Positions 1,318-46,082 of a DNA stretch of 47,173 nucleotides are shown here, piece by piece. The stretch lies in contig REEL01000132.1 of NCBI GenBank assembly GCA_007695095.1, positions 1 through 47,173 on the forward strand. The letters run 5' to 3'. Each line of letters starts with the position of its first letter. Position 1 is the stretch's first letter. Origin of the DNA: Chitinophagaceae bacterium (lineage in GTDB: Bacteria; Bacteroidota; Bacteroidia; Chitinophagales; REEL01). A program made the position numbers and the translations under genes. A model generated the notes under the pieces. It did not search any database and was not told where the DNA came from. It was given only the letters and a program-made list of their open reading frames with translations.

Positions 1318-1759
1318 GCTTTAATGTGATTTTGGATAGGAGAAAACCTCCCCCTGCCTGTCATGCTGACGATAGGTAGCATCTCCGTATTTCCATTGAA
1401 CCTGTTAATTAATGGGTAGACAGGTGGCTGAGCGGAGTCGAAGTCAGCGGACTTGAAAATATTAAAATATAACTTAAGAAAATAGGCTTTGAACATTGAA
1501 TGCCAGCCGGAGAGAGTTTTACCCACATTATCCATTATCAATTTTTACTCCTTGGAATTTGGTCTCTTGGGTCTTGGTCTTCTTGGGACTTGCAAAGAAT
1601 ATTTTCCATCATAATTTTTACATAAACAGCTACCTTATTCCTTTCAGACTTTATAAACTTTCTACTTTCAACTTCTTCCCTTGAGACTTGGGTCTTTCAC
1701 TTGCCTACTGCCTACTGCCGCTGCCTACTTTCCCTTGGGTCTTCTTTCCTCCCCCCTCT
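1318..1759. repeat. Intergenic patch of dispersed repeat modules
   Basis: 442 bp without a credible gene. It holds short modules that recur in the gap at 40597-41091: 1359-1387 matches 40755-40783 at 27 of 29 bases; TGAGCGGAGTCGAA at 1429-1442 recurs inverted at 40616-40629; 1501-1516 (TGCCAGCCGGAGAGAG) matches 40655-40670 with one change; 1601-1620 equals 40681-40700 exactly. The right half is rich in CTTGGGACTTGG-type words related to the 73-bp repeats at 41029 and 42706, and 1702-1728 holds a short TGCCTAC tandem. The patch ends at the TAG stop of the minus-strand gene at 1760. Confidence 0.75.
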
Positions 1760-25405: not shown

Positions 25406-28039
25406 TTAATCCATATAAATAATTTTGGTTACTTTTCTGAAGTCAGGTGTTTTGAAGTAAATAAAATACATACCCGGTGCTAATCCATAAGAACGGAAAT
25501 TGAATTCCAGGTCATATATACCCCATTCATGTACCATATTATCCGGCAGTAAATCCGCCATTAATTGGCCGGTAATATTAAACAACTTCATCTGAACTTC
25601 CATATTCTCCGGTAACTGATAGGCAATAGTTAAAACATCACTTGTTACTGTTGGAAAGGCTGTCATATTCGTATATGGCACTTCCAAAGGAACTTCAGGT
25701 ATTGGCTCCGGGTCTGGTTCAGGGTCCGGAATTGGGTCCGGGTCAGGATCAGGAATTGGGTCCGGGTCAGGATCGGGGTCCGGGATTGGGTCCGGATCAA
25801 CCGGAGGAACGATTTCTTTAAAATGTGCAATTATTGTGTCTCCCTCGGTAAAGTTTAAAACAATATTTGCGGTAGTATCATTTGGTAAAACTATATTATT
25901 ATTTAATTCCCAGTAATCAAAAGTATAGTTCCCGGCAGGTAAAGCTTCCAGCAAATTATCAAGATTTCCAAAATAGGAAGCCATATAAGGAAACTGAAAC
26001 AATGTTAATGTATTAAATTTAACAATCCCGGCTCCGGCAGGCTCAATGTCTACTACAACATCGTATGGACCAACCATATCATAACAATCTTCCATTCCCT
26101 GAGCCATATAATCACAGCGTGCCAGTATAAAACTCTTTAATGAGTTTACATTATTTTGCCAGCCATTATAGTTTCCACCCCAGCGATCAAATTGACCTTG
26201 CATTTCCGGCTCTATTCTATCTAATAATTCATCCAGCAAGTCAATCATATAATCACAAGAAAAAATAGTGTTCATCAAATCTGCATATCGAGATAGATAA
26301 TACTGTCTGAAAACATCGCTTTCATCCAAAAGCTTATTCAAAATAAGGGAGTGTCCTTGTCCGCCTGGATTTGGTAATGCTTCAGCAAAACAAGGGTCAG
26401 CTGTAGGGCTTGTGTTGGGTATGCCGGTATAATTTATGTAATGCCCAAAAACAGCATCCATATCCCATAAAGTATACCTCCACCGTAGTTGCTCACCCGA
26501 TGGATTCGTTCCTCTCCACCATTTTGTATTCCAGTTTAACCAGTCCATTGCAACTATATAGGTGTTGATGATTTTATGGTCGGCAAAACTTTTTAAATCT
26601 ATTCTTGCCCTGACAAAATTATAGTTTGCCTCTACTGATAAATCATTATTTAAAGCAAAGTTTCTTACTAAATTCCAGTCGTCAAAAGCTGCCTGTCCAC
26701 CGTAATTTGCCCAGGTTCCTCCCCAGGTTTTGAGGTAATAAACATCTTCCATTCTTTGTCCGTAGTAATACTCCGTAAAGTCTTTATCATCTATTTTTTC
26801 ACGTGTTTCATATACTCCCCAATACTGACCGTTAACGTATAAAATTGCAGGCTCATAAGTTCGTTCATCTAAGTGTAAGTTTCCCCTTTGTGAAAGAGTT
26901 TGCACAAAAGCATCCCTTATGTGAGCCCCTCCCGATTCAAAGGGATAATTATCATTGGCTCCGGCCTTCCACATAACCCGCTGAAATTCTGTTCTCGATT
27001 TTCCGGCAAAGATCTTGTGATGTAATGCATTTCCATAACCGAAATCATCCCTTGAAATGAAATCCACCCCTCTTTGTCCATAAGACCAGCTGTCATTTCC
27101 ATGCTTATTAAATTCACCGGTTACCTTTGTTTTGAACTCCATATCTTCAAAGTATTCAACACTTCCATGTGGTCTTATCTGAGTGCCTCCAAACAAAGTC
27201 AACAACCCGGTACCTGAAACTGAAACTACCGGAACGCTATGGCTTACATCAATAAAGTAAGTGTTGAATTCATATAATCCCGGTAAAATCTGATTGTCAT
27301 TATGAAAAACACGTGCTTTAACAACAGTTGTAGAGTTTATCGTTAATGGACCATTATAAATATCTGAGGTTGGTGTCGGTTCAGTACCGTTTGTTGTATA
27401 ACGAATAACTGCATTCGTTTCATTAGTAGTTATGTTTACGGTAACCGGCCCATTGTAAAACCCACCCTGCACATCAAATTCCGGAATTTCTGTATAGCGG
27501 TCATAAGCTACGGAACTATTATTTGAAGAACCAAAAGTAGGGTTGGTAAATACGCTCCAGGTAGAAGCTCCATCTGTAGTTCGCCCGTAGGAGTGATTTG
27601 TTAATGTAATATGATTATGAAGATTATAGCTTTCAAGAATATTACCTGACGGGTCTGCAAAAACAATAAATTCCGGATTTGCCTTTCGCTGAGATAACTT
27701 AAAGTTTGTATGTACCTGCCCGGCAGCAAATTCATCTTTTCGGGAAGCCCAAACTCTTAAATGACCATTTGCAGGAACGACAACTCCCTGTGGGAATTCC
27801 CACTTTGTTGGATTATTAATACGGTCACTTAAATGATACCCACTTATATCATAAGGGGTAGCAGATGCATTGTAAATTTCTATCCAATCTTCATATCTGC
27901 CGTAATTATCCTGGTATTGGTCAAAGTTTGAACAAGAAAATTCATTTATCATTACCTGCCCATTTAATGGCAAACTAAATATCACCAATGCTATAGAGGC
28001 AAACAAAAATGAAAAAAATACATTTTTAAACTCCATCAT
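25406..28039 (-). CDS. CotH-kinase/lamin-tail-domain secreted protein with T9SS sorting domain
   Basis: About 877 aa from ATG 28039. The frame also opens 10 codons earlier at 28069, but the signal peptide (FFSFLFASIALVIFSLPLNG) follows MMEFKN naturally. Order: lamin-tail domain (VMINEFSCSN, DWIEIYNASA, ISGYHLSD); a chitobiase C-terminal-like segment (VRYTTNGTEPTPTS type); a CotH kinase domain with VNGQYWGVYETREKID and the metal-site LWDMDAVFGHY; a Pro-Asp-rich linker; and a T9SS type A domain at the end. CotH proteins are atypical kinases that phosphorylate proteins outside the cytoplasm; activity here is inferred from the retained motifs. The linker is encoded by a hexamer-based DNA repeat. 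A strong terminator follows the gene. Confidence 0.86.
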   Translation of the reverse strand: MMEFKNVFFSFLFASIALVIFSLPLNGQVMINEFSCSNFDQYQDNYGRYEDWIEIYNASATPYDISGYHLSDRINNPTKWEFPQGVVVPANGHLRVWASRKDEFAAGQVHTNFKLSQRKANPEFIVFADPSGNILESYNLHNHITLTNHSYGRTTDGASTWSVFTNPTFGSSNNSSVAYDRYTEIPEFDVQGGFYNGPVTVNITTNETNAVIRYTTNGTEPTPTSDIYNGPLTINSTTVVKARVFHNDNQILPGLYEFNTYFIDVSHSVPVVSVSGTGLLTLFGGTQIRPHGSVEYFEDMEFKTKVTGEFNKHGNDSWSYGQRGVDFISRDDFGYGNALHHKIFAGKSRTEFQRVMWKAGANDNYPFESGGAHIRDAFVQTLSQRGNLHLDERTYEPAILYVNGQYWGVYETREKIDDKDFTEYYYGQRMEDVYYLKTWGGTWANYGGQAAFDDWNLVRNFALNNDLSVEANYNFVRARIDLKSFADHKIINTYIVAMDWLNWNTKWWRGTNPSGEQLRWRYTLWDMDAVFGHYINYTGIPNTSPTADPCFAEALPNPGGQGHSLILNKLLDESDVFRQYYLSRYADLMNTIFSCDYMIDLLDELLDRIEPEMQGQFDRWGGNYNGWQNNVNSLKSFILARCDYMAQGMEDCYDMVGPYDVVVDIEPAGAGIVKFNTLTLFQFPYMASYFGNLDNLLEALPAGNYTFDYWELNNNIVLPNDTTANIVLNFTEGDTIIAHFKEIVPPVDPDPIPDPDPDPDPIPDPDPDPIPDPEPDPEPIPEVPLEVPYTNMTAFPTVTSDVLTIAYQLPENMEVQMKLFNITGQLMADLLPDNMVHEWGIYDLEFNFRSYGLAPGMYFIYFKTPDFRKVTKIIYMD
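25701..25800 (-). repeat. In-frame hexamer-based tandem repeat coding a Pro-Asp linker
   Basis: On the plus strand, units of 30, 24 and 30 bp plus a partial one each begin ATTGG (25701, 25731, 25755, 25785). They are built of 6-bp words such as GGGTCC and GGATCA. They encode alternating Pro-Asp with periodic Ile between the kinase domain and the sorting domain. Unit lengths are multiples of 6, so copy-number change keeps frame. Confidence 0.8.
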
Positions 28040-28199
28040 AAGAGACTCATTTATAGGTAAAAAACACATAAATATAATAAGTTAACACAACTTTATCAGT
28101 ATTTTACATCTTTTTTTATGTATACCGTCTAAAATTAAATGTAAAAGTGCAACTGTTAGAATATTTTAATCTTAAGCTTTTAAATTATGTATTCTTGTT

Positions 28200-40227: not shown

Positions 40228-40596
40228 TTGGAAGAAAAAAAGACGACACTTGTACTTGGAGCCTCAGAAAACCCTTCCAGATATAGCTATCTGGCAATTG
40301 AAAGGTTGTTAAATGCCGGCATTGAGGTAGTGGCCGTCGGAGCTAAAAAAGGGAATGTTCATCAGCATGAAATTAACGATAAAATACCCTTTGACAGGGA
40401 GATACATACGATAAGCATGTATTTATCTGCCAAAAATCAGCAAGCTTATTTTGATGATATTTTAAAGTTAAAGCCAAAAAGAATCATTTTTAATCCCGGT
40501 GCAGAAAATCGTTTATTAGAAAAGACTGCTACAGAAAACCAAATAGAGGTTTTACATGCCTGCACTTTAGTGATGCTATCCACAGATACTTTTTGA
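40228..40596 (+). CDS. CoA-binding domain protein (YccU-like)
   Basis: 122 aa with a TTG start: an in-frame TAA lies at 40213-40215 and no ATG occurs between it and the conserved VLGASENPSRYS. That glycine-rich segment (about residues 9-20) is the nucleotide-binding start of the Rossmann-like CoA-binding fold found alone in YccU-type proteins and in acyl-CoA synthetases (NDP-forming). The C-terminal part (LKPKRIIFNPGAENRLLE, then ACTLVMLS) fits the family. Function is not established. Confidence 0.85.
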   Translation: MEEKKTTLVLGASENPSRYSYLAIERLLNAGIEVVAVGAKKGNVHQHEINDKIPFDREIHTISMYLSAKNQQAYFDDILKLKPKRIIFNPGAENRLLEKTATENQIEVLHACTLVMLSTDTF

Positions 40597-41091
40597 TACT
40601 ATAATTTTAACTTGTTTCGACTCCGCTCAATACAAGTTGCTCAGGCTGCGGCGATGCCAACCGGAGAGAGCTCTCACAACATTTTCCATCATAATTTTTA
40701 AATTAAAAATACATTCTAACCCTTTTATTAAATAAGCAAACCCTTCACCCTAACTGTCATGCTGACGACAGGAAGCATCTCCGGATTAATTGGGAGACTT
40801 TTCTCTATATTCAAAATGACAACCGTAGTTAGCTCCCCCCACATTATCAATTTTCAATTATCCATTAACCATTTCTAACTCTTTCTATTCAGGAGATTAT
40901 TACACGCGACTTAGGAGCATGTACAAAATCCAATATTTACGGTAGTCGCGCTCATAATGACGGAAGTTTTTTAGGTTTTCCTTTTTATGAGCGGGCTAAT
41001 AAAACTGCTGCCTTTGAATTTTTGAATTCTTGGGACTTGGGCTTCTTGAAATTTGGTCTCTTGGGCATTGCGCAAGCACTTCCCACCCTGT
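40597..41091. repeat. Intergenic patch of dispersed repeat modules
   Basis: 495 bp without a credible gene. It carries the same modules as 1318-1759: TTCGACTCCGCTCA at 40616-40629 (inverted relative to 1429-1442), TGCCAACCGGAGAGAG at 40655-40670, the 20 bases at 40681-40700 identical to 1601-1620, and 40755-40783. The 40755-40783 copy contains ATGCT/AGCAT arms around a 10-base centre, like a small REP hairpin. Low-complexity CATTATCAATTTTCAATTATCC follows near 40841. The right end holds the first copy of the 73-bp repeat. Confidence 0.75.
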
Positions 41092-41101
41092 CTACTCCTT
41101 A
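41029..41101. repeat. 73-bp direct repeat, copy 1
   Basis: Starts CTTGGGACTTGGGCTTCTTG and matches 42706-42778 at 69 of 73 bases in the same orientation. It contains the palindrome TTGCGCAA. It overlaps the last codons and the TAG stop (41092-41094) of the T9SS gene on the minus strand. Confidence 0.9.
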
Positions 41102-42594
41102 ACCAACTTCCCCCGGGCAATAACCTCATGCTTACTGACTACTTTGTAAAAATAAATACCCGCTTGTAGCATGGGTTTGTCCAATCTATACGTTAAAGTC
41201 TCCTGATTGTCTGCCTTGGTTTTTAGTTCTTTAACAACTTTTCCCTGTATGTCATATATACGGCAAATGGCATCATGAGCCGGACGACCGTCTAATGCGA
41301 CTTCTATCACAGCCTGCCCGCTAAACGGATTCGGATAGACTTTGGACTGCAAATATTGCGGTGAGATGTCTATAACCCCTACTGTATCTGATGTATCTAT
41401 ATGGCAACCCGGCTCCAGACAACCCATGCTGTCAAGTTTTACTAACCAGATGTCCTGATCATTATAGACAGTATGACCGGTGAGGATAAATCCATTATCC
41501 GGTGTTGGCTTTACATCATAAAAATAGGCATGTATTGGATACAGCGGGCTTTCTTCATATTTGTAGCGCCTCGTCCAGAGAATATTTCCGTTTGCATCCA
41601 TACGGGCAATCCAACCCCCTAAAATTTGCGGGCTCATATCCATGTTTTTATAGGTGCCGGCTATAACGATATCCCCATTTGACAGTTCCCTTATACTTCG
41701 CACATCATGTTCCTCATATTCGTCAAAGGGAAGCATTTTTGTCCAGACAGAATCACCTTCAGATGTTAATCTTCTTAATCTGGTAAGGCCGGCAAAAACA
41801 GTATTTCCCGGACGAACAATTTGACTAAATACAATATCATTATTTTCCAAGACAATTATATTATAAAGAGAACTTGTAGAATAATTTTCATCTTCAAATA
41901 TTTTGTCCCACAAGATATTCCCTAAAGAATCTATTTTTATCAGCCAACCTTTTTCTTCATTATAAGTACACCCTAAATAAAGATTGCCATTTGAGCCTAA
42001 TTGAATAGATCCACCGGCATTGTAAGTAAAATTTGTTCCATAAATATTTTGCCACATGAAGTTACCAAGACTATCAACTTTTACCAGAAAAACATTGTCT
42101 CCCCCTGACTTAGTTCTTCCGATTGCAGCATATCCGCCATCATGTGTTTTTATAACATCCTGACCAATAGTCCAAAAACCCGGTATTCCAATGGTATTTA
42201 TAAAAACAGTATCACCTAAGGCATCAAATTTTGATAGAAATACCTGACTAGCACTTCCGTCTTTATACTGAATACTACCACCTACAATAAACTCATTCTG
42301 TTCATTCATTTCCCAGGAACTGTTTCCGGGATATAAATTTACATCCGGATTTCCATGCGTATTTACCCATTCAACTTCTCCTTCAAGATTCGTTTTGGTA
42401 ATAGCAGTTAATATATGATATTCTGGTGTATCTAAAGAGGTATTTCCACAAATATAATACCCATCTTCAGTTGCAAATACATTCCATCCAATTTCTAAAC
42501 CACCAACATCAATGGCTTTGCTGAAGGTAATTTGTTGCGCATTACACATAAAAAAAAGGCTTATCATTAAATAGACGGCTACTATACTTTTCAT
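41092..42594 (-). CDS. T9SS cargo protein with beta-propeller-like repeats
   Basis: 500 aa. Signal peptide about residues 1-19 (VAVYLMISLFFMCNAQ). The body has repeated units of the form 'DSLGNxxWxxxYG' and 'GxxxxxxDGGYAAIGRT' (VKVDSLGNFMWQNIYG, IKIDSLGNILWDKIF, MDANGNILWTRRY), as in Bacteroidota propeller-like surface proteins. The C-terminus is a T9SS type A domain (KVYPNPFSGQAVIEV through GIYFYKVVSKHEVIARG). No enzyme motif is seen. The gene is bracketed by two 73-bp direct repeats, and its stop codon lies inside the downstream copy. Confidence 0.85.
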   Translation of the reverse strand: MKSIVAVYLMISLFFMCNAQQITFSKAIDVGGLEIGWNVFATEDGYYICGNTSLDTPEYHILTAITKTNLEGEVEWVNTHGNPDVNLYPGNSSWEMNEQNEFIVGGSIQYKDGSASQVFLSKFDALGDTVFINTIGIPGFWTIGQDVIKTHDGGYAAIGRTKSGGDNVFLVKVDSLGNFMWQNIYGTNFTYNAGGSIQLGSNGNLYLGCTYNEEKGWLIKIDSLGNILWDKIFEDENYSTSSLYNIIVLENNDIVFSQIVRPGNTVFAGLTRLRRLTSEGDSVWTKMLPFDEYEEHDVRSIRELSNGDIVIAGTYKNMDMSPQILGGWIARMDANGNILWTRRYKYEESPLYPIHAYFYDVKPTPDNGFILTGHTVYNDQDIWLVKLDSMGCLEPGCHIDTSDTVGVIDISPQYLQSKVYPNPFSGQAVIEVALDGRPAHDAICRIYDIQGKVVKELKTKADNQETLTYRLDKPMLQAGIYFYKVVSKHEVIARGKLVKE

Positions 42595-42619
42595 ATGAGT
42601 TGTGTTTTAATTAAGTATT

Positions 42620-42627
42620 CAAATATA
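42620..42627 (-). promoter_or_regulatory. Candidate -7 element (TATATTTG) for the T9SS gene
   Basis: Exact TAnnTTTG on the minus strand, 25 bases before ATG 42594. No TTG -33 element is obvious at the usual spacing. Confidence 0.42.
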
Positions 42628-42705
42628 ATCATTTTATAATTCAGATTAAAAGCCGATGTCAGATACCCCCACACATTTTCCATTATCCATTTTCCATTCT
42701 TCTCC

Positions 42706-42778
42706 CTTGGGACTTGGGCTTCTTGAAATTTGGGCTCTTGGGCCTTGCGCAAGCACTTCCCACCCGGCCTACTCCTTA
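42706..42778. repeat. 73-bp direct repeat, copy 2
   Basis: Second copy of the 41029-41101 repeat, same orientation, four mismatches. It lies about 110 bp upstream of the T9SS gene start. It contains the 10-bp palindrome CTTGCGCAAG. Confidence 0.9.
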
Positions 42779-43199
42779 TTTTATCCGGTTAAATAAGATA
42801 AAGTTTGCTAATTGATATAAGGAAGCTTGCGGGTTTCTTATATGTATATAAATCAAAAGTAATAAAATTTGGCCATATTTTCATATCCAACTTTTGTGTC
42901 GCACAAGTAAAGTTGTTGAGCAGTCATCTGATGAATAATTTATTTAACGGTAATATAATACTGTATCAACAGAAGAAGCAGAAAGCTGAAATATCAACTA
43001 TTTTTATGCAGAGAAAAACTTTTTACATACAAGTTAAAATTTAATTTGTATATTTATTCAATTAATTATAGGGATTATAGCTTGCCAAAATAGACCATTT
43101 ATCCCGGATTTAAGGCCAGTTGCCTGATAGATAAGGTTAAAAAATATAAGAAGTTTCTATAAGGCTTGTTCGCTTTTATTAAAGGAAAAATTTTCAGTA

Positions 43200-46082
43200 A
43201 TGAGAAAGGGATTATTTTATACTAAGCTTTTTACCAAATTTTTAATGGTATTTGTACTGATACTACTATCAAATACCTCTTTATGTTCTCAAAACTGTTG
43301 GCAGAATTTCTACCCAATAATCTCCGGATTTACTAATTCATTTAAATATAGTAAGATTTTCCCGCATTCAAACGGGTTTTATGTTTATGAATTGGGCTCC
43401 GCATTTTCGAATGGTTATCAAAACAGGTATTTGTACAGTTTTGACGAATATGGGAATCTGGTTTTTAAAAAATATATATCTAACAACACAACAAATGTAA
43501 CAGGAAATAACATATCTGTTGCTGAAGATGGTGCATTTTTCTCAGCAACCACAAAATTAAATGGGATAGATTTTGTTGCACAGAACGGCGATACCGTTGA
43601 ATATAAAAATCTTATTCTCCGGAAATATAATCAACAGGGAATTTCTACCTCTAATGAATGGGAGTTTATTTATTTTGATAACCAAAACTATATAGGGGGA
43701 GAGCTTTTTGTAAAAGAGTTGGACAATGGAGATATTTTAGGGGCATTTTCTATTTGTGACATCACTTTACTTCCGGACTCTTGTTTTGCTACTCATACCC
43801 GTCTGATTCGCTTAACAAGCGATGGGAATCTTGTCTTTATAAATGATTATGAAGATTTTGTCTTTACTGGAATTGTTGGACTGGATGATGGAAGCTATCT
43901 AGTGTCTGCTTATGATCGCCAATCCACATTAAGCGGTAGTTTGCATTTATTAAAATTAAATAATAACGGAGATACACTGTGGTCAGTTGATTATAATGAA
44001 AATGCTAATTTTCTTAGCTCTATTCATAAAACAAGCGATAATCATATTTTACTGCAAAGTTTAGGCAGATTATTGAAAATTGATTTAGACGGAGATACTG
44101 TCTTCACAATAGGACCGGGTGCATCCTATCAAAATGTACAGGCTATTGAAAATGGTCAATTTGTCGGACTAACCTCAACAGGTCATGGTAATCAATTTAG
44201 ATTAGGACTACAGAAATTTGATGCAAATGGACAGTTGATTGATGAGCTTACATTACCAAATGATTCACTTTCCGGTCCTTTAGGTGATGCTCAAAGTAGA
44301 TTTTTTAGACACGATTTAAAGATTACCGATGATGGCAGGTATTATATTTCTGCTTTTCGTCAAAACAACTCTAGTGGCCCTCAGGGACTTTTTGTAATGT
44401 CTATGGATGGGATGCAAACTTGTCCGGAACCAATAAGCGAAGAAGAGAATATCGGAAAACCGAATTGTATGTTTTTAGATGCCGGAAATGTAAAAGCAAG
44501 CTTATGTACCGATGGTTTGCTTTTTTCTCCGATTTATGATGGTGGTTATTTTACACCCTCTGATAGCATAACATCAACAATTTTTACTTCTAATTTTTGG
44601 ATGGGCGGTGTAGATGCCAATACAGACAGTCTGCATGTTTCGCAAAAAGTATACAATATTAACGGACAATACTGGCCCGGACAAAGAAGCGAAAATAATA
44701 TATTAAGTCCCGCTGAATCTAATCTATGGGATAAAGTTTGGCAGGTTCGCCATACAGATGTAGTCAATCACATCAATGATTTTCTTCAAAATGGCCAAAT
44801 TGACAATCCGAATCCATTCATTTTTGAATGGCCGGGTAAGGGAAATATACACGCAATTGGAAATAATGGAAACCCTTTATTGGTAGATAATGAAGCGGCT
44901 CCTTTTGTAGATTTAAATGGCAATGGAATTTATGAGCCTCACTTAGGCGAATATCCGGCAATTAAAGGTTGTCAAATGCATTGGTTTGTAGTGAATGATT
45001 ATTTGCATGACGAGTACCTATATTACAATAATTGGTCAGCGGGAGATAAAGTTGGAGCAGACATACAGGTTTCAGCTTATGCTTTTTCCGATGCAGATGA
45101 CCCGGAATTATACAATTCAATTATTACAGAGTTTAAAGTTATCAACCGCTCAGGTCGGGATTATGAAGACTTTTATTTTGGCAATTTTATTGACTTTGAA
45201 ATAGGGTGTTTTAATACGGATTATATGGGTTCAAATATTCCAACACATACCTTTTATGGTTACTCCGCAACAGAAACAGATCCGGATTGTTCAACACCGG
45301 GCTATGGTCAGCACCCTCCCGTACAAACAGCCACTTTTTTAAATCACTCAATGTCAAGTTTTAGGTTATATACTTCATCTTTTAGCCCACCACATGCCCA
45401 ACCATCAACAAAAGAACATTTTTATAATTTTCTATTAGGCCTATGGACTGATGGTTCCCCTATTACTGAAGGTGCACCCGGGATAGGCGGCACCGTACCC
45501 ACAAAATATATGTTTTCAGGTAATCCGGCAAACCCGCAAGAATGGAGTGAGTGCTCTGAGAATATTACTCCGGGCGATCGTAAAGGCTTTGCCAGTACCG
45601 GACCATTTTCATTACCTCAAAATGCCTCACTGGAGATTAAGATGTTATATACCACTCACTATCAGGAAGACTTAGGGGGTTGTTTTGATTTTGATGCAAA
45701 AGTAAAGCCGGTGGTTGAGGATTTAAGAAACAGCTTTCCAAATTATGTAGAATGCATAAATGAAGGTGCAATTCCTGAAATACCTGATTCAATGATAATT
45801 TATGATATAGAAGAAGTGCTGCACGACTCTTTGTTTATAAATCTGTATCCTAATCCCTCAACAGGTCAATTTATACTTGAGCTTCATTTTGAAGAAAATA
45901 CAGATTTTCAAATAAAGGTTTACAATGCTTTAGGCCAGAAAGTCTATCGTTCCGAAAACCTATTCACTTTTGCAAATCAAGTCGTTAAAGAGGAAATTGA
46001 CATTGGGTACACCAAAGGGGTTTATTTTTTACAACTGATTATGGGCGGTGAAAAGCTACATAAAAGATTAGTTGTTCAGTAA
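43200..46082 (+). CDS. Large T9SS cargo protein
   Basis: 960 aa. Export signal near the N-terminus (FLMVFVLILLSNTSLCSQ, about residues 15-32). Residues 40-400 have propeller-like repeats (YSFDEYGNLVFKKY, LIRLTSDGNLVFIND, LLKLNNNGDTLWSVDY). A second, beta-rich region (about 430-870) contains DLNGNGIYEPHLGEYPAIKG, resembling a Ca-binding-like DxNxNG loop, and VINRSGRDYEDFYFGNFIDFEIG. This two-part layout recurs in large Bacteroidota T9SS proteins. The end is a T9SS type A domain (NLYPNPSTGQFILEL through GVYFLQLIMGGEKLHKR). No catalytic motif is recognised. It converges on the next T9SS gene. Confidence 0.85.
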   Translation: MRKGLFYTKLFTKFLMVFVLILLSNTSLCSQNCWQNFYPIISGFTNSFKYSKIFPHSNGFYVYELGSAFSNGYQNRYLYSFDEYGNLVFKKYISNNTTNVTGNNISVAEDGAFFSATTKLNGIDFVAQNGDTVEYKNLILRKYNQQGISTSNEWEFIYFDNQNYIGGELFVKELDNGDILGAFSICDITLLPDSCFATHTRLIRLTSDGNLVFINDYEDFVFTGIVGLDDGSYLVSAYDRQSTLSGSLHLLKLNNNGDTLWSVDYNENANFLSSIHKTSDNHILLQSLGRLLKIDLDGDTVFTIGPGASYQNVQAIENGQFVGLTSTGHGNQFRLGLQKFDANGQLIDELTLPNDSLSGPLGDAQSRFFRHDLKITDDGRYYISAFRQNNSSGPQGLFVMSMDGMQTCPEPISEEENIGKPNCMFLDAGNVKASLCTDGLLFSPIYDGGYFTPSDSITSTIFTSNFWMGGVDANTDSLHVSQKVYNINGQYWPGQRSENNILSPAESNLWDKVWQVRHTDVVNHINDFLQNGQIDNPNPFIFEWPGKGNIHAIGNNGNPLLVDNEAAPFVDLNGNGIYEPHLGEYPAIKGCQMHWFVVNDYLHDEYLYYNNWSAGDKVGADIQVSAYAFSDADDPELYNSIITEFKVINRSGRDYEDFYFGNFIDFEIGCFNTDYMGSNIPTHTFYGYSATETDPDCSTPGYGQHPPVQTATFLNHSMSSFRLYTSSFSPPHAQPSTKEHFYNFLLGLWTDGSPITEGAPGIGGTVPTKYMFSGNPANPQEWSECSENITPGDRKGFASTGPFSLPQNASLEIKMLYTTHYQEDLGGCFDFDAKVKPVVEDLRNSFPNYVECINEGAIPEIPDSMIIYDIEEVLHDSLFINLYPNPSTGQFILELHFEENTDFQIKVYNALGQKVYRSENLFTFANQVVKEEIDIGYTKGVYFLQLIMGGEKLHKRLVVQ

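What the first reader, a model, noticed from the sequence alone, without database searches (positions are those of the whole stretch)
41029..42778. 73-bp direct repeats bracket a T9SS cargo gene, one copy containing its stop codon
41029-41101 and 42706-42778 match at 69 of 73 bases in the same orientation. Together they enclose the 500-aa secreted-protein gene, and the downstream copy supplies its last codons and TAG stop. Recombination between them would remove the gene and leave one repeat. The gene could be a cassette in a set of exchangeable surface-protein genes, or the repeat may be a terminator-like element that spreads between genes. The match and layout are seen; the recombination role is inference.
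Basis: partly seen in the sequence, partly recalled or inferred. Interest (0 to 1): 0.55.

Follow-up and report, generated by a model that had tools for sequence, protein, structure and literature searches.

The report
Scattered mosaic repeat flanking secreted-protein gene
The two matching 73-base stretches are two of about fifty copies of a patchwork repeat that fills gaps between genes in this bacterium, so they look like ordinary repeat copies and not a special device around this gene, although such repeats could help nearby genes be gained or lost.

Summary
The 69-of-73 match is real, and the gene between the copies carries a type IX secretion tail. The gene is on the minus strand, so the left copy (41029-41101) is the downstream one and supplies AAG GAG TAG. 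The pair is not a private bracket. Both copies belong to a composite intergenic repeat that I find at 49 loci of this genome (listed in 39). Modules lie on one strand in a rough order: heptamer-like words, a 150-base module with a CGTC-tagged palindrome, more words, more palindromes. Among 48 repeat stretches, 48 alignments are at least 70 bases and 92% identical; this pair ranks 44th by score and 22nd by identity. Stop codons touching the repeat recur. Most flanking genes are unrelated; no terminator was found. The nearest known kind is the neisserial intergenic mosaic element. Exchange of the gene is untested: no close relative or read set is held. One hint keeps it open: all six neighbouring pairs within 3.2 kb share strand and, among genes with a Pfam match, enclose only type IX cargo or genes I recall as toxin-antitoxin type.

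The parts
41029..41101 (-). Left (downstream) 73-base copy: words C/T/B of the mosaic; its end gives the gene's last two codons and TAG stop
42706..42778 (-). Right (upstream) 73-base copy: same words, in the divergent spacer between the 500-aa and 960-aa genes
41092..42594 (-). 500-aa secreted protein with type IX secretion sorting domain (Por_Secre_tail)
   Evidence: no close paralogue found in the genome (next best match 32% identity over about 100 aa)
40884..41035 (-). Module A: about 150-base repeat; 13 near-full copies aligned, this one included
40892..40962 (-). Imperfect palindrome inside module A; on the minus strand it starts CGTC and ends CTCC
40754..40782 (+). Palindromic module E (TGTC...AGCAT CTCC)
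40663..41074 (-). Whole mosaic downstream of the gene, order T B J A1 A2 Q E K Q
42660..42705 (-). Words D and Q: continuation of the upstream mosaic towards the gene's start
1358..1719 (-). Third mosaic of the same family in the window, between two other genes

Best explanation
The two 73-base sequences are homologous segments of two copies of a composite intergenic repeat of this genome (a mosaic of short heptamer-like words and CGTC/TGTC-type palindromes). The family spreads among spacers by copying and by recombination between copies (inferred). One copy starts at the gene's stop codon and the other lies in the divergent spacer upstream; they share a sub-type that probably arose by a local copying or recombination event (inferred). 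The repeats most likely have no dedicated role for this gene. Like any repeated spacer they give homologous recombination a place to delete, duplicate or import what lies between, at low rate (inferred).
For: Copies at 49 loci of the own genome (listed in 39). One strand and a rough module order in the 35 clusters scored, apart from single reversed words in L090 (two) and L104 (one) and the nearly self-complementary word Q. Forty-eight alignments of at least 70 nt and 92% between 48 stretches; the window pair is 44th by score and 22nd by identity, and 46 of the 48 link different contigs. Thirteen near-full module A copies aligned. A stop codon inside the same word also at C70, and 12 of the 15 ORFs whose stop faces a mosaic end within 60 nt of its first word. 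Flanking genes include citrate synthase, gyrase A, ribosomal L27 and S6, CoaE and others; 34 of 41 outer flanking genes are not type IX cargo.
Against: Bases 42-60 of the repeat in this form occur only at this pair (2 hits with up to 3 mismatches, none elsewhere), so a local event is needed on top of general spread. All six neighbouring pairs within 3.2 kb are of one strand and, among genes with a Pfam match, enclose only type IX cargo or genes recalled as toxin-antitoxin type, which a purely passive repeat does not predict. No mobilising enzyme was identified. The word order is not strict (C follows B in several clusters).
Confidence: 0.85

Rival explanations
1. Neisseria-like exchange: mosaic arrays serve as homology anchors through which accessory genes (type IX surface proteins, toxin-antitoxin pairs) are imported, swapped or lost; the 500-aa gene with its own upstream region came in as such a cassette.
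For: Six of six neighbouring mosaic pairs within 3.2 kb share strand; their enclosed genes with a Pfam match are four Por_Secre_tail proteins, DUF433, DUF5615, PIN, DUF2442 and DUF4160. Precedent in meningococcus: pilC1 flanked by such arrays in one strain, with repeats that might be its integration or deletion site in another (PMC3898611, passages).
Against: Six pairs, noticed after the fact; an 80-aa ORF at C113 has no Pfam match and three ORFs of 53-56 aa beside the mosaics were not scanned. Type IX tails number at least 148 over the cut-off in this genome and such genes often stand alone in large spacers (inference). The gene's G+C (0.379) equals the window's (0.374). No empty site seen because no close relative is held.
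Confidence: 0.15
2. Tandem duplication and loss: a type IX gene with its 3' mosaic was duplicated in tandem and one gene was later lost, so the upstream copy is the relic of a lost gene's 3' end.
For: The ten bases T AAG GAG TAG are shared by both copies although only one is coding; tandem type IX paralogues exist at C145.
Against: AAGGAG(AAAG)TAGG is itself close to variants of the family's word, so no gene remnant is needed; in the right copy the same frame has a TAA 12 bases before the TAG (sequence); the C145 paralogues have no mosaic between them (18 bases between the ORFs).
Confidence: 0.1
3. Terminator or RNA-processing element selected at gene ends.
For: When an ORF's stop faces the mosaic, 12 of 15 lie within 60 nt of the first word; palindromes are present.
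Against: No intrinsic terminator-like site in 40560-43250, no Rfam family in six sources, 14 of 29 clusters do not follow a co-directional gene, and the right copy lies in a divergent spacer.
Confidence: 0.05

Closest known systems
Neisserial intergenic mosaic elements (NIMEs: dRS3 palindromes plus RS repeats)
   Same: Intergenic arrays of several hundred bases made of interleaved short palindromes and longer repeat words, many copies, a surface-protein gene lying between arrays (PMC3898611 and PMC3733652, passages)
   Different: Palindromes seen here differ in sequence from the printed dRS3 pattern; modules lie on one strand in a recurring order; 49 loci and not about 700 dRS3 copies; no phage integrase target is known
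CGTC-tagged REPs (PMC3733652)
   Same: CGTC or TGTC tag, AT at the start of the stem in A, E and F, intergenic, reported in Bacteroidetes, no dedicated transposase known
   Different: Tail is mostly CTCC and not CCA; palindromes are longer or have larger loops than stem 8-9 and loop 4-5
Short tandemly repeated heptamers and small dispersed repeats of cyanobacteria (recalled); TAACTGA repeats of Beggiatoaceae (PMC4679880, listing and start of abstract only)
   Same: Words of about seven bases in intergenic arrays
   Different: Here three or more different words in a recurring order, interleaved with palindromic modules
RAYT-associated REPs / BIMEs
   Same: The genome holds a Y1 transposase on C101 between inverted copies of its own palindrome
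   Different: That palindrome is not module A, E, E2 or F; I saw one similar copy beside a mosaic (L153) and did not search for more

Membership tests
Dispersed intergenic mosaic repeat (general kind) | Many copies at unrelated spacers of one genome | tested here: met
   49 loci, varied flanking genes
Dispersed intergenic mosaic repeat (general kind) | Copies built from recurring modules | tested here: met
   35 clusters scored
CGTC-tagged REP | CGTC (or TGTC) at one end | tested here: met
   A 14 of 14, F 10 of 11 CGTC; E 18 of 20, E2 7 of 7 TGTC; only matches reaching both ends of the module were counted, so these shares lean upward
CGTC-tagged REP | Stem of 8-9 bp with 4-5 base loop and CCA tail | tested here: not met
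   Tail CTCC in A 13 of 14, F 9 of 11, E 17 of 20, E2 6 of 7; modules of 29-72 bases with other stems and loops; definition from PMC3733652 section 6
NIME | dRS3 20-mers ATTCCC(N8)GGGAAT with RS repeats | not tested
   Pattern not searched; palindromes seen differ in sequence
Intrinsic terminator | G+C-rich stem followed by T run | tested here: not met
   0 sites in 40560-43250
Exchangeable cassette between direct repeats | An allele or read with one repeat and no gene | not testable with these tools
   No reads; no close relative (the 58 other genomes share only the order; the 25 loci are at 56-61% protein identity)
Integron gene cassette array | Integron integrase and attC sites | not tested

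The most novel reading that the evidence does not exclude
A Bacteroidota counterpart of neisserial mosaic elements: same-strand mosaic arrays act as homology anchors around single accessory genes, type IX surface proteins and toxin-antitoxin pairs above all, and so generate presence/absence variation of the secreted repertoire.
Probability: 0.15. Interest if true: 0.55.

Novelty: new member of a known kind. Interest (0 to 1): 0.25.

Why it matters
It shows that a striking 95% repeat pair around one gene can be ordinary family similarity once the whole genome is searched, and it documents a mosaic intergenic repeat family, found as a whole in only one of 396 genomes of its order in a coarse search, that fragments this assembly (32 of 49 loci lie within 1 kb of a contig end). 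If the accessory-gene pattern holds in relatives, it would give type IX-secreting bacteria a route for exchanging surface proteins like that proposed for meningococcus.

Tried and rejected
Replication-strand bias of the mosaics: contigs seemed to carry mosaics of one orientation, but GC-skew sign agreed in 16 of 31 stretches only, and C83 carries both orientations; dropped.

Words widespread in the order: the B-word pattern gave 17 hits in the 58 other genomes against 67 for its reversed control, 45 of these in one genome (summed from its table); dropped for that word. A result against full genome-specificity: a D-word stretch of the window matched two other genomes over 29-32 bases at 91-93% (G021, G047). 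The C113 mosaic as a whole matched only the own genome of 396, but that search scored two candidates per genome and returned only four matches even in the own genome, so it would miss partial copies. Word scans of 25 loci from distant relatives gave isolated hits only.

Phage or plasmid origin: no match in phages with window 40600-42800, in plasmids with the C113 mosaic, or in viral contigs for one exact 34-base pattern. An RNA family: none at gathering score in the window and five loci.

Module A as a coding remnant: one frame is open for 77 codons up to 41101, the other two are broken. I treat it as a palindromic repeat.

Y1 transposase as the mover: two matches in the genome; the C101 gene is flanked by a different palindrome; no link shown.

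Type IX enrichment: 7 of 41 outer flanking genes against roughly 150 per 2,500-3,000 genes (the gene number is my estimate) gives P from 0.004 to 0.06 by the baseline chosen; 5 of 49 loci at a type IX 3' end gives P 0.10 to 0.42. The 41 are mostly the nearest ORFs of at least 100 aa in the loci and the window; flanks of the loci fetched were left out.

Rows dropped before counting 49 loci: nine two-mismatch hits and five one-mismatch hits, taken as likely chance.

Literature: seven word searches listed no title that describes this family; only two papers were opened, in passages and one section.

Full report
Observation. The two stretches match at 69 of 73 bases in the same orientation, far beyond chance. 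They flank a 500-aa ORF on the minus strand, 41092-42594, whose C-terminus matches Por_Secre_tail, the type IX sorting domain. The copy at 41029-41101 is therefore downstream of the gene, and its last ten bases encode AAG GAG TAG plus one base of the preceding codon.

It is one family among spacers. A search of the whole genome (3.49 Mb, 186 contigs) with the left copy gave 30 matches at E up to 1: the two window copies at full length and 28 partial ones, most of them within bases 1-37. Bases 42-60 occur in this form only at the pair. The DNA around the left copy, 40884-41066, has 22 further matches of 80 bases or more (40 of 72 candidates scored); thirteen near-full copies, the window's included, align at 88% mean column identity. 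With word searches I list 49 mosaic loci; nine two-mismatch hits and five one-mismatch hits were left out as likely chance. In one search the pattern had 56 hits and its reversed control 8.

Anatomy. In the 35 clusters of three or more words that I scored, words lie on one strand in a recurring order: C (GGCAGTA heptamers), B (CCCAAG words), J and module A, K, D (GGAAAAT heptamers), Q, then palindromic modules E2, H, G, E, F and M. The order is not strict: C follows B in several clusters. Exceptions to the single strand are reversed words in L090 (two) and L104 (one) and the nearly self-complementary Q. Some clusters run through the order twice (C113, C164, C88). Read so that the tag comes first, module A and F begin CGTC (14 of 14, 10 of 11), E and E2 begin TGTC (18 of 20, 7 of 7), and most end CTCC; only matches reaching both ends were counted, so these shares lean upward. 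The centre of module A folds as an imperfect hairpin; three of 30 predicted pairs show changes on both sides, which is weak support.

The pair inside the family. Read on the minus strand both copies run from a C-like word through TTGCGCAA to B words. After them the right copy goes to D and Q words, and the left copy has module A first, so the two look like the same mosaic start with and without module A. In an all-against-all comparison of 48 stretches covering the 49 loci, 48 alignments are at least 70 nt long and 92% identical; the window pair is 44th by score and 22nd by identity, and 46 of the 48 link different contigs. Many of these cover other modules than the pair does. The similarity of the pair is therefore what copies of this family show elsewhere; what is local is the shared sub-type.

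Stop codon. Of 29 clusters with an ORF on the 5' side (mechanical ORFs of 80 aa or more), 15 follow a co-directional one and 14 do not; in 12 of the 15 the stop lies within 60 nt of the first word. At C70 another gene also ends inside the same word, GAG TAG GCAGGG. A stop codon in the repeat is thus a recurring consequence of mosaics abutting gene ends.

Neighbours. The genome has at least 148 type IX tails over the cut-off (150 matches; 150 of 213 candidates scored). Five of 49 loci lie within 150 bases of the 3' end of such a domain, and 7 of 41 outer flanking genes carry it; the others include citrate synthase, gyrase A, L27, S6, CoaE and response regulators. Enrichment is weak and depends on the baseline. 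A result against the plain reading: the six neighbouring pairs within 3.2 kb (C15, C113, C132, C141, C145, C156) all have one strand and enclose type IX proteins (C132, C156, two at C145) or PIN, DUF433, DUF5615, DUF2442 and DUF4160 genes, with one 80-aa ORF lacking a Pfam match and three unscanned ORFs of 53-56 aa. That these DUF and PIN genes are toxin-antitoxin type is recalled. The sample is small and was noticed after the fact.

Spread. The whole C113 mosaic matches none of 395 other genomes of the order, in a search that scored two candidates per genome and found only four matches in the own genome. Short D-word matches occur in two other genomes of the order. Phages, plasmids and viral contigs gave nothing. 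The loci found by a neighbouring enzyme are 56-61% identical, so no genome close enough for an empty-site test is held.

Mechanism. Shown: a dispersed, modular, largely single-strand family; a pair of ordinary similarity; stop codons inside or beside the first word. Inferred: spread by copying and recombination between spacers, and a local event for the shared sub-type. Not shown: any deletion, insertion or exchange of the gene.

Comparison. Neisserial mosaic elements are the nearest kind. Passages of PMC3898611 describe arrays of dRS3 and RS repeats, and pilC1 lying between such arrays in one strain with the corresponding repeat region in another. PMC3733652 (passages; section 6) places dRS3 among CGTC-tagged REPs and reports such REPs in Bacteroidetes. 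The palindromes here share the tag but mostly not the CCA tail or the short stem and loop, so I do not file them as members.

Verdict. A repeat family of a known kind, which I did not find described in the listings of seven paper searches, explains the finding; the cassette reading stays open at low probability.

Noticed in passing
L107 3104-3691 (contig C101): A 195-aa Y1 (IS200-like, RAYT-like) transposase gene lies between inverted copies of a palindrome with GTCCGTAGCG...CGCTACGGAC; a similar palindrome sits beside a mosaic at L153.
   Followed up: partly
L152 1121-2533 and 2552-3916 (contig C145): Two tandem type IX cargo paralogues with very similar C-terminal tails, 18 bases apart, enclosed by two same-strand mosaics.
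   Followed up: partly
49 mosaic loci: 32 of 49 mosaic loci lie within 1 kb of a contig end, so the repeat probably breaks the assembly and the copy count is a lower bound.
   Followed up: partly
window 25695-25799: Overlapping short direct repeats (TCCGGGTCAGGA-like units) inside the ORF 25406-28069 on the minus strand.
   Followed up: no
L102 5057-5290 and L103 5033-5265: In both loci the middle of module A is replaced by the same other repeat, with arms AACCCGCAAGGTT and AACCTTGCGGGTT.
   Followed up: no
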